A stretch of DNA of 64,000 nucleotides from Elusimicrobium minutum Pei191 (GTDB taxonomy: Bacteria > Elusimicrobiota > Elusimicrobia > Elusimicrobiales > Elusimicrobiaceae): NCBI RefSeq assembly GCF_000020145.1, contig NC_010644.1, forward strand, positions 1,550,001 to 1,614,000, read 5' to 3'. The notes beneath the pieces were generated by a model. It was not told where the DNA came from and ran no database searches. It was given only the letters and a program-made list of their open reading frames with translations. The translations under genes and the position numbers were made by a program. Of the stretch, positions 14,044 to 16,520 are shown in pieces (the first letter of the stretch is position 1; every line of letters begins with the position of its first letter).

Positions 14044-15927
14044 ATGGATATGTTCGGACAAGAAAAAGACAGATATATAAGCTTATCAAACAAATACCGC
14101 CCCCAAACCTTTGAAGACGTTGTGGGACAGGAAACTATTTCAAAAACTTTAACAAACGCCATTAAACTAGGACGCGTCGGACACGCCTACCTTTTTTACG
14201 GACCAAGAGGGTGCGGCAAAACAACTTCCGCAAGAATTTTCGCTAAAGCTTTAAACTGCACCGGCAACGGCAATAAGCCTGCCGCGTCGCCTTGCGGCAA
14301 ATGCCCGCAGTGTATAGAAATAGCCAACGGCAGCGATATGGACGTGCTTGAGTTAGACGCAGCCTCCAACACGCAGGTTGATAAAATAAGAGAAGCTATT
14401 ATAGACACTGTTGCCCTTGCCGCTACGAGGGACAGGTTTAAAATTTTTATTTTAGACGAAGTGCACATGCTCTCAGACAGTTCTTTTAACGCTTTACTCA
14501 AAACTATTGAAGAACCGCCGGCGCATGTTGTTTTTATCTTAGCCACTACAGAAAAACATAAGGTGCCGGCCACTATTTCAAGCCGCTGCCAGACATTCCG
14601 TTTCAGACCGATTACGCAAGAAGATATCTCCGCCCATTTAACCGCGCTTGCGCAAAAAGAAAATATTAATATTGAACCTAAAGCGGTTCAAATAATAGCT
14701 TCCCAGGCGGGCGGCGCGCTTAGGGACGCTCTTACCATTTTAGACAGAGCTATAGCTTATTCAGACGGCAGCATAACGGAGGAACTTGTTATAGACATGC
14801 TTGGCCTTATGCCTGAGGATATTTTAAAGGCCGCAGTTAAAGCTGTTTTAAAGAAAAATTATAATGAAATGCACACCGTTTTTGAAACCATTCAAATGGA
14901 AGGGTTCGACCCGCTTTCATTTTTGCGTGATTTGAAAAACGCTTTGGGCGATTTGTTTTATTTGTCCATAGGCCACGGACATGAACCGTTTTCAGGAGCT
15001 GCCGAACTTGCTAAAAAAACCTCCCCTTCTTATATAGCGGGACTTACAAGGAAAATAAATAAAGTTATTGACGAAACAAAATTCGCCGATTCACCTTTAA
15101 TAACCGCTGAAGTTGGTATATTTACGGTAATGGATTCCTGCATTGATTTAGACGCTTTTATAAAACGCTTGGAAAAACTTGAAAGCGCTTTAAGCGGTAA
15201 CAGCCCGACGGAAGAAGAAAAAAAAAATTTAAACAGCTTTAACCCGTCCCAAACAAAAGATAATAACATTGAAATAACCCAAAAACCGGTAACGGCTAAA
15301 ATAACTGTTGAAAATATAGGACAGGAAGCTCCCAAAAAAGCGCCTAAAGTTGTCCACGCGAAAATAGCGGATATTCCGTTGCCCGCAAAAAAATCTACAA
15401 CAGCACAGCCTGAAAATGCCGATTTCCAAAAATTTAAATTAAGTTTTAAAGATAACTTTTTTATTTTTGACGCACTTAAAAACTGCTCTTATGAAATAGA
15501 AGGGGATACCTGGTCTTTAAGTTTTAACAAAGCAAATTCCTTTTACGCTACGGCGCTTGAGGTAAAAATAGCAGAACTTGAGGAAAAATCACAAGAGCTG
15601 TTTGCTAAAAAAATAAATTTTATTTTCTCAGCGGAGATGGAAACAAAACCTGCCCCTGCAAAACCCGCTTCCGTAAAAGAAAAGAGAATCCCTTTTGCCC
15701 CGATTGAAGGAAATGCGGAACCTACATTTAAATCACCTTTTAAACCTAAAACACAGCAATCTCCCGTAAAAACAATTGAAGCTCCGGCGAAACCTGTTAT
15801 TTACAATGAGGAACCTTTTGTAAAAAAAGACTTTTCCGCCGAATTTGAAAGCGTTAAAACAGACAGGGAAATACCTGATTATGTAAAAAGTTTCCTGGGC
15901 ATAATACCGGGGGAGGTCATTAAATAA
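14044..15927 (+). CDS. dnaX: DNA polymerase III gamma/tau subunit
   Basis: A 627-residue clamp-loader ATPase. The Walker A motif is GPRGCGKT (53-60), the four-Cys zinc module is Cys72, 84, 87 and 90, and the Walker B is FILDEVHML. The sensor motif is LATTEKHKVP and the arginine-finger region is SSRCQTF. Domains I-III end near residue 375; the rest (to 627) is a low-complexity Lys/Pro/Ala linker with a tau-type tail. A run of ten A at 15218-15227 (codons 392-395) lies at this boundary, and stops occur within a few codons in both shifted frames, which could yield a gamma-length product of 395-399 residues. It overlaps recR by one base (TAATG). Confidence 0.97.
   Translation: MDMFGQEKDRYISLSNKYRPQTFEDVVGQETISKTLTNAIKLGRVGHAYLFYGPRGCGKTTSARIFAKALNCTGNGNKPAASPCGKCPQCIEIANGSDMDVLELDAASNTQVDKIREAIIDTVALAATRDRFKIFILDEVHMLSDSSFNALLKTIEEPPAHVVFILATTEKHKVPATISSRCQTFRFRPITQEDISAHLTALAQKENINIEPKAVQIIASQAGGALRDALTILDRAIAYSDGSITEELVIDMLGLMPEDILKAAVKAVLKKNYNEMHTVFETIQMEGFDPLSFLRDLKNALGDLFYLSIGHGHEPFSGAAELAKKTSPSYIAGLTRKINKVIDETKFADSPLITAEVGIFTVMDSCIDLDAFIKRLEKLESALSGNSPTEEEKKNLNSFNPSQTKDNNIEITQKPVTAKITVENIGQEAPKKAPKVVHAKIADIPLPAKKSTTAQPENADFQKFKLSFKDNFFIFDALKNCSYEIEGDTWSLSFNKANSFYATALEVKIAELEEKSQELFAKKINFIFSAEMETKPAPAKPASVKEKRIPFAPIEGNAEPTFKSPFKPKTQQSPVKTIEAPAKPVIYNEEPFVKKDFSAEFESVKTDREIPDYVKSFLGIIPGEVIK
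15218..15227 (+). other. Ten-adenine tract in dnaX: candidate slippage site
   Basis: Ten consecutive A in the frame GAA AAA AAA AAT. Gain of one A, or a -1 ribosomal shift, reads KKKFKQL then TAA at 15240-15242. Loss of one A, or +1, reads KKI then TAA at 15230-15232. Thermus dnaX uses a nine-A tract for transcriptional slippage and E. coli dnaX uses a -1 ribosomal shift at A AAA AAG. Confidence 0.6.
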
Positions 15928-16520
15928 TGAAAAGTTTTGACCGTCTTGTACGCGCTTTAAGGCGTTTGCCCGGCGTAGGCCCCAGACAGGCGGAGCGCTT
16001 TTCCGCTTATTTTTTAAAAACCAGCGACAGTGAAATTGACGAGTTTATTAACGCTTTATCCGCTCTTCGTGAAAATATTCATCTTTGTTCAATTTGTTTT
16101 GCCTATTCGGAAGACGGGGTTTGCGATATTTGTGAGGATTCTTCCCGCGAGCGTGATATCATTTGCGTAGTTGAAGACCCGCAAGACATTGAAGCTATTG
16201 AAAAAACAGGCGCATTTAAAGGCCTGTATCATGTGCTGCACGGCGCGCTGTCACCCATAGATGGCCGTGGCGTTGAAAATATAAAAATAAGAGAACTTAT
16301 TGAACGCATACATAATTCCCAAACACCTGTGAGAGAGGTTATTATAGCTACCGACCCTGACACTGAAGGAGAAACCACCGCCCTTTATATTGCCGACGCT
16401 TTAAGAGGACTTGTTGATAAAGTTTCCCGCATAGGTTACGGCGTTCCTTTAGGCGGCGATTTGGATTATTTAGACGAAATGACTTTAACCTATTCTTTAA
16501 AAGGCAGAACAAAACTATAA
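15927..16520 (+). CDS. recR: Recombination mediator protein RecR
   Basis: A 197-residue RecR, which with RecO and RecF loads RecA onto gapped DNA. The helix-hairpin-helix region (LRRLPGVGPRQAERF) is followed by a four-Cys zinc finger (CSICFAYSEDGVCDIC). The Toprim domain shows VVEDPQDIEAIEKTG and the ATDPDTEGETTA motif. Length is normal. The dnaX-recR linkage is widely conserved, and here the two genes overlap by one base. Confidence 0.97.
   Translation: MKSFDRLVRALRRLPGVGPRQAERFSAYFLKTSDSEIDEFINALSALRENIHLCSICFAYSEDGVCDICEDSSRERDIICVVEDPQDIEAIEKTGAFKGLYHVLHGALSPIDGRGVENIKIRELIERIHNSQTPVREVIIATDPDTEGETTALYIADALRGLVDKVSRIGYGVPLGGDLDYLDEMTLTYSLKGRTKL

What the first reader, a model, noticed from the sequence alone, without database searches (positions are those of the whole stretch)
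15211..15242. Ten-A tract in dnaX that would give a gamma-length product by slippage
The A10 run (15218-15227) lies at the domain III to tau-linker boundary. A one-base gain or -1 shift stops at 15240-15242, and a one-base loss or +1 shift stops at 15230-15232, giving 399 or 395 residues. Thermus and E. coli use slippage or frameshifting in dnaX for the same purpose, with different sequences.
Basis: partly seen in the sequence, partly recalled or inferred. Interest (0 to 1): 0.65.

Follow-up and report, generated by a model that had tools for sequence, protein, structure and literature searches.

The report
Conserved slippery A-tract in dnaX
The gene for a DNA-replication clamp-loader subunit carries a run of ten A's, kept in the same place in dozens of related bacteria with stop codons waiting in both other reading frames, so one gene very likely makes a long and a short protein by slippage, as is known in Thermus.

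Summary
An A10 run (15218-15227) lies in an intact 627-aa dnaX frame, about 30 residues past domain III. One base gained gives 399 residues and one lost gives 395. It is the only A10 in any open reading frame of this 1.64-Mb genome, which strongly avoids A9+ runs.

The tract is present in the congener (A10), in 11 of 17 species of another genus of the family (A9), and in 46-47 of 52 species read of the sister family (mostly A10, many at 55-70% GC). In 13 of those species it is the only A10 in the assembly. Stops close behind it in both other frames recur (12/12 and 41/46, against 8% and 2.3% by chance) through changing codons. Genus g2 (66 species) lacks it.

No Shine-Dalgarno-like motif or hairpin is conserved, and both tRNA-Lys are present. 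This matches Thermus-type transcriptional slippage rather than E. coli-type ribosomal frameshifting. No RNA or protein data exist here, so slippage itself is inferred. It is a new, order-wide member of a known kind.

The parts
14044..15927 (+). dnaX, zero-frame product 627 aa (tau)
14044..15132 (+). domains I-III (AAA+ ATPase, lid, domain III), shared by tau and the predicted gamma
   Evidence: Pfam PF13177 28-190, PF22608 195-242, PF12169 244-363
15218..15227 (+). A10 slippery tract; codons GAA AAA AAA AAT from 15217
   Evidence: homologous A9/A10 in congener, genus g5 and sister family
15230..15232 (+). TAA stop in the +1 frame (one A lost or two gained): 395 or 396 aa
15240..15242 (+). TAA stop in the -1 frame (one A gained or two lost, or a -1 ribosomal shift): 399 or 398 aa
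15228..15234 (+). in-frame U_UUA_AAC heptamer; a -1 shift here would reach the same TAA at 15240; not conserved
15243..15924 (+). tau-only linker and C-terminal part, absent from the predicted short product
15927..16520 (+). recR-like gene whose ATG overlaps the dnaX stop (TAATG)
   Evidence: name from own reading of the sequence, not searched

Best explanation
The A10 tract is a programmed frame-disruption site that makes one dnaX gene yield two clamp-loader subunits. RNA polymerase slips on the tract and produces mRNAs with varying numbers of A. Messages with 10 (or 10 plus or minus 3n) A give full-length tau. The others run into a stop in one of the two other frames within 12 nt and give a gamma-like protein of about 395-399 residues (domains I-III plus a short tail) lacking the tau-specific C-terminal part. 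Shown: the tract, both stops, the product lengths, conservation across the order, and the absence of the usual ribosomal-frameshift stimulators. Inferred: that slippage occurs, that it is transcriptional, its ratio, and that the short protein is stable and enters the clamp loader.
For: Tract and stops. It is the genome's only A10 within an ORF, in a genome with about 38 A9+ runs where about 1,000 would be expected by scaling the window shuffles. Among 13 family tract genes, genome-wide A9 densities predict about 0.03 such runs at this site. The tract is in the congener and 11/17 g5 species and 46-47/52 sister-family species, and is the only A10 in 13 of those assemblies (with 54, 61). Both alternative-frame stops lie within 16 nt in 12/12 (null 8%) and 41/46 (null 2.3%); the +1 stop, which a -1 ribosomal shift does not need, is in 12/12 and 41/46 against nulls of 41% and 23%, carried by many different codon pairs. 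No SD or hairpin signal although the E. coli control shows one. Two lysine tRNAs, UUU and CUU, as described for Thermus (PMC5009743). Run phase varies between species (phases 0, 1, 2) while the position and, in most, both stops are kept.
Against: No cDNA or protein data. Genus g2 (66 species), a g5 subclade and three single-species genera lack the tract, so gamma by this route is dispensable there. Ribosomes can also slide on A runs (PMC4363877 abstract), so conserved stops in both frames do not by themselves prove a transcriptional origin. Species are related, so the naive binomial values overstate significance.
Confidence: 0.76

Rival explanations
1. Ribosomal frameshifting or sliding: ribosomes slip on A_AAA_AAA/A_AAA_AAT, or on the following U_UUA_AAC, and terminate at TAA 15240, giving the same 398-399 aa product from homogeneous mRNA.
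For: In-frame A_AAA_AAA, A_AAA_AAT and U_UUA_AAC heptamers with a -1 stop 5-14 nt away. E. coli dnaX uses A_AAA_AAG. Ribosomes slide on iterated AAA codons (PMC4363877 abstract).
Against: No conserved SD-like motif (1/12 and 1/46) and no downstream hairpin beyond background, unlike the E. coli control (AGGGAG, z -2.1). Conserved +1 stop. Two tRNA-Lys. U_UUA_AAC is absent from nearly all relatives at this site.
Confidence: 0.17
2. Chance run of lysine codons in an A+T-rich, lysine-rich linker, without function; any slippage is tolerated noise.
For: Codon shuffling within these genes gives A>=9 somewhere about as often as seen; g2 lacks the tract; Endomicrobium dnaX genes have A9 runs elsewhere too.
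Against: Real genomes avoid A9+. Every A>=9 run in the family's dnaX genes is at this one site and phase. Conserved in 55-70% GC relatives with only 43% AAA usage, often the only A10 in the genome. Stops in both frames far above the null.
Confidence: 0.04
3. Replication slippage and phase variation: the tract changes length in DNA, giving subpopulations that make only gamma-length DnaX.
For: A10 tracts mutate easily (general knowledge); a few MAG dnaX genes show frameshifts, though at other places.
Against: Every tract gene read keeps the tau frame through the tract despite lengths of 9-11 and differing phases. dnaX tau is normally essential, so a DNA-level switch would be costly.
Confidence: 0.03

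Closest known systems
Thermus thermophilus dnaX transcriptional slippage (A9; Larsen et al. 2000, as described in PMC1088944, PMC5009743, PMC4320859)
   Same: Single ORF for tau, a long A run in the coding strand, nearby stops in both other frames, a gamma-like short product expected, two lysine tRNAs.
   Different: A10 here (A9-A11 in relatives); [quoted passage not shown] stops at +2 and +12 nt here, two and sixteen codons away in Thermus; slippage not measured here.
Escherichia coli dnaX -1 programmed ribosomal frameshift (A_AAA_AAG, SD, hairpin)
   Same: One dnaX gene, short product ended by a stop just after an A-rich shift site.
   Different: No A_AAA_AAG heptamer, no SD-like element, no hairpin signal, two tRNA-Lys, and a conserved +1-frame stop.
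Two-ORF dnaX with poly-A (10 A in nine genes; Chlorobi among the class; GeneTack, PMC3711429)
   Same: Poly-A of about 10 in dnaX, transcriptional slippage proposed.
   Different: There gamma is the zero-frame product and tau needs the shift; here tau is in frame and gamma needs it.
Blochmannia dnaX frameshifts in A tracts (PMC3017870)
   Same: A tract in dnaX, transcriptional slippage invoked.
   Different: There slippage rescues a broken reading frame in the tau-only region; here the frame is intact.

Membership tests
Thermus-type dnaX transcriptional slippage | tau encoded by one uninterrupted ORF | tested here: met
   627-aa ORF
Thermus-type dnaX transcriptional slippage | run of at least nine A on the coding strand | tested here: met
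   A10
Thermus-type dnaX transcriptional slippage | nearby stops in both non-zero frames after the run | tested here: met
   TAA 15230 and TAA 15240; conserved
Thermus-type dnaX transcriptional slippage | short product keeps the clamp-loader domains I-III | tested here: met
Thermus-type dnaX transcriptional slippage | mRNA population heterogeneous in A number | not testable with these tools
   needs cDNA sequencing
Thermus-type dnaX transcriptional slippage | gamma protein present at a defined ratio to tau | not testable with these tools
   needs immunoblot or mass spectrometry
Thermus-type dnaX transcriptional slippage | separate tRNAs for AAA and AAG (correlate proposed in PMC5009743) | tested here: met
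   tRNA-Lys UUU (L338) and CUU (L348)
E. coli-type dnaX -1 ribosomal frameshift | A_AAA_AAG heptamer in frame | tested here: not met
   A_AAA_AAA and A_AAA_AAT only
E. coli-type dnaX -1 ribosomal frameshift | upstream Shine-Dalgarno-like stimulator | tested here: not met
   none in G000; 1/12 and 1/46 in relatives
E. coli-type dnaX -1 ribosomal frameshift | downstream stem-loop | tested here: not met
   z -0.23 in G000; relatives at background; E. coli control -2.1
Two-ORF poly-A dnaX (GeneTack type) | gamma is the zero-frame product, tau needs a shift | tested here: not met
   tau frame is open
Phase-variable simple repeat | tract length polymorphic in DNA between cells or strains | not tested
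   no strain or read data; between species the length is 9-11

The most novel reading that the evidence does not exclude
A dnaX slippage site is ancestral to the whole order Elusimicrobiales and under strong selection for about a 10-A run with stops in both frames, to the point of being the only A10 in several GC-rich genomes, while one gut genus (g2) has lost it, so a short clamp-loader subunit is maintained in most of the order and was dropped or made another way in that genus.
Probability: 0.7. Interest if true: 0.6.

Novelty: new member of a known kind. Interest (0 to 1): 0.5.

Why it matters
Whether the short clamp-loader subunit gamma is biologically needed has long been debated (PMC5009743). 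Slippage in dnaX had been shown in Thermus and proposed mainly for two-ORF genes such as those of Chlorobi. An order-wide conserved site in a distant phylum, with many natural losses in one genus, is independent comparative evidence that gamma is selected for, and gives a natural with/without comparison. It also marks an RNA-polymerase slippage site that can be measured directly in an organism for which I believe an isolate exists.

Tried and rejected
(1) Run presence against codon shuffling: not significant on its own, so not used as evidence. (2) U_UUA_AAC (15228-15234) as the real shift site: rejected as not conserved. (3) E. coli-like SD and hairpin: absent. (4) A replacement signal in genus g2: isolated G7/G8 runs in L012, L055 and L058 and scattered heptamers without near stops, nothing conserved. 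(5) Tract elsewhere in the phylum: nothing consistent in the other families of the class (30 genes with none; two A10/A11 genes in one family); sporadic A9 near the site in Endomicrobium-like genomes, which also have A9 runs elsewhere in dnaX. (6) Truncated dnaX frames as two-ORF types: L087, L072 and L265 are frameshifts at other places (L087 still carries the A9); L251 and L264 simply end without a tau extension that I could see.

Full report
**Observation.** The window lies at 1550001-1614000 of a single-contig genome of 1,643,562 bases. The size and the close relative, an Elusimicrobium MAG whose contig has the same length as G067's (9,256 bp), point to Elusimicrobium minutum; this name is my inference. 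dnaX runs from 14044 to 15927 (627 aa) and is recognised as DNA polymerase III gamma/tau, with the Pfam domain III match ending at residue 363. The coding strand reads GAA GAA GAA AAA AAA AAT TTA AAC AGC TTT AAC, with A10 at 15218-15227. One base gained puts TAA 15240-15242 in frame and one base lost puts TAA 15230-15232 in frame.

**Rarity.** A9 occurs 6 times in the window against 40.7 expected from dinucleotide shuffles, and 40 overlapping times in the genome. A10 occurs twice, once in dnaX and once in front of a gene, outside any ORF. The genome avoids long A runs, as expected where polymerase or replication slips on them (argument of PMC1088944). A whole-gene codon shuffle, however, gives A>=9 in 13.9 of 84 family dnaX genes against 12 seen, so a run in a lysine-rich linker is not surprising in itself.

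**Conservation in the family.** dnaX was read from nearly all 90 genomes held for the family. All A>=9 runs, 12 in intact genes and one more in a MAG with an upstream frameshift (L087), sit at the same place just after domain III. Those in intact genes all start at the second base of a GAA codon: A10 in this genome and its congener, A9 in 10 intact genes of genus g5 (11 of 17 species with L087). The 12 intact genes all have stops in both other frames within 16 nt, most often at +3 and +7; elsewhere in the linkers of the same genes this happens at 8% of positions. Genus g2 (66 species), a subclade of five g5 species plus one more, and three single-species genera lack the tract.

**Conservation in the sister family.** Of 52 dnaX genes read in family f2, 46 have A9 or longer between residues 371 and 466 (40 of them A10 or longer), and a 47th (G134) has it at the same site in a longer frame. 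One counted gene, L417, and its sister L437 carry the run some 70 residues further on. The commonest form is CAA AAA AAA AAT GAN NNN YTA G: TGA directly behind the run in the -1 frame, and TAG or TGA 5-14 nt behind in the +1 frame. Many of these genes are 55-70% GC, and together they use AAA for only 43% of lysines. In 13 of the assemblies the dnaX tract is the only A10 of the genome (one search read). The +1 stop is carried by many different codon pairs, which points to selection on the stop rather than on the protein. Both stops lie within 16 nt in 41 of 46 against a null of 2.3%. A tree of the N-terminal domains puts tract-bearing lineages on both sides of the f1/f2 split, with outgroup families of the class lacking it; the fewest changes on that tree are nine. 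Ancestry in the order with several losses is the simplest reading, but the tree does not itself tell gain from loss.

**Mechanism.** Three facts favour polymerase slippage over a programmed ribosomal shift. The +1-frame stop is maintained, although a -1 shift does not need it. Shine-Dalgarno-like and hairpin stimulators are absent, while the same test finds AGGGAG and a stable fold at the E. coli site. The genome has both tRNA-Lys UUU and CUU, the situation that PMC5009743 links to polymerase slippage in Thermus. The run also appears in all three codon phases across f2 with its position kept. Ribosome sliding on poly-A (PMC4363877 abstract) would leave similar sequence traces and is not excluded. 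Only cDNA can decide.

**Comparison with known systems.** The closest case is Thermus thermophilus dnaX: a single ORF, A9 and stops in both other frames. The E. coli type fails three tested features, and the two-ORF poly-A dnaX genes of PMC3711429 are the reverse arrangement. A full-text search for Elusimicrobi- plus dnaX found no description of this site in the held library, where PMC3711429 mentions the phylum only in a table of genomes scanned.

**Verdict.** The finding is real, conserved and most likely functional. It is a new, order-wide member of a known kind. The transcriptional step and the existence of gamma remain to be shown by experiment.

Noticed in passing
window 15925-15927: The recR-like gene starts inside the dnaX stop (TAATG). 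Early termination at the tract would leave recR uncoupled on slipped messages, so the slippage ratio could also affect recR output.
   Followed up: no
window 15228-15234: An in-frame U_UUA_AAC heptamer directly follows the A10 tract and would reach the same -1 stop; not shared with the congener or nearly all g5 genes.
   Followed up: yes
L087 (G071), L072 (G026), L265 (G280): MAG dnaX genes with a frameshift at places other than the tract; assembly errors or real, not resolved.
   Followed up: partly
L211, L218, L220, L227 (Endomicrobium-like family f21): A9 runs with near stops in both frames lie near the same place in a few species, but these A+T-rich genes also have A9 runs elsewhere.
   Followed up: partly
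L421 (G168), L432 (G164): Two species of family f7 of the same class carry A10 and A11 at codons 385 and 414, possibly an independent origin of the same device.
   Followed up: no
G001-G066 (genus g2): All 66 species of this genus lack the tract; whether they make a short DnaX another way is unknown.
   Followed up: partly
L251 (G275), L264 (G277): Two Endomicrobium-like genomes have dnaX frames of only 389 and 398 aa with no visible tau extension, that is, gamma-length by themselves.
   Followed up: partly
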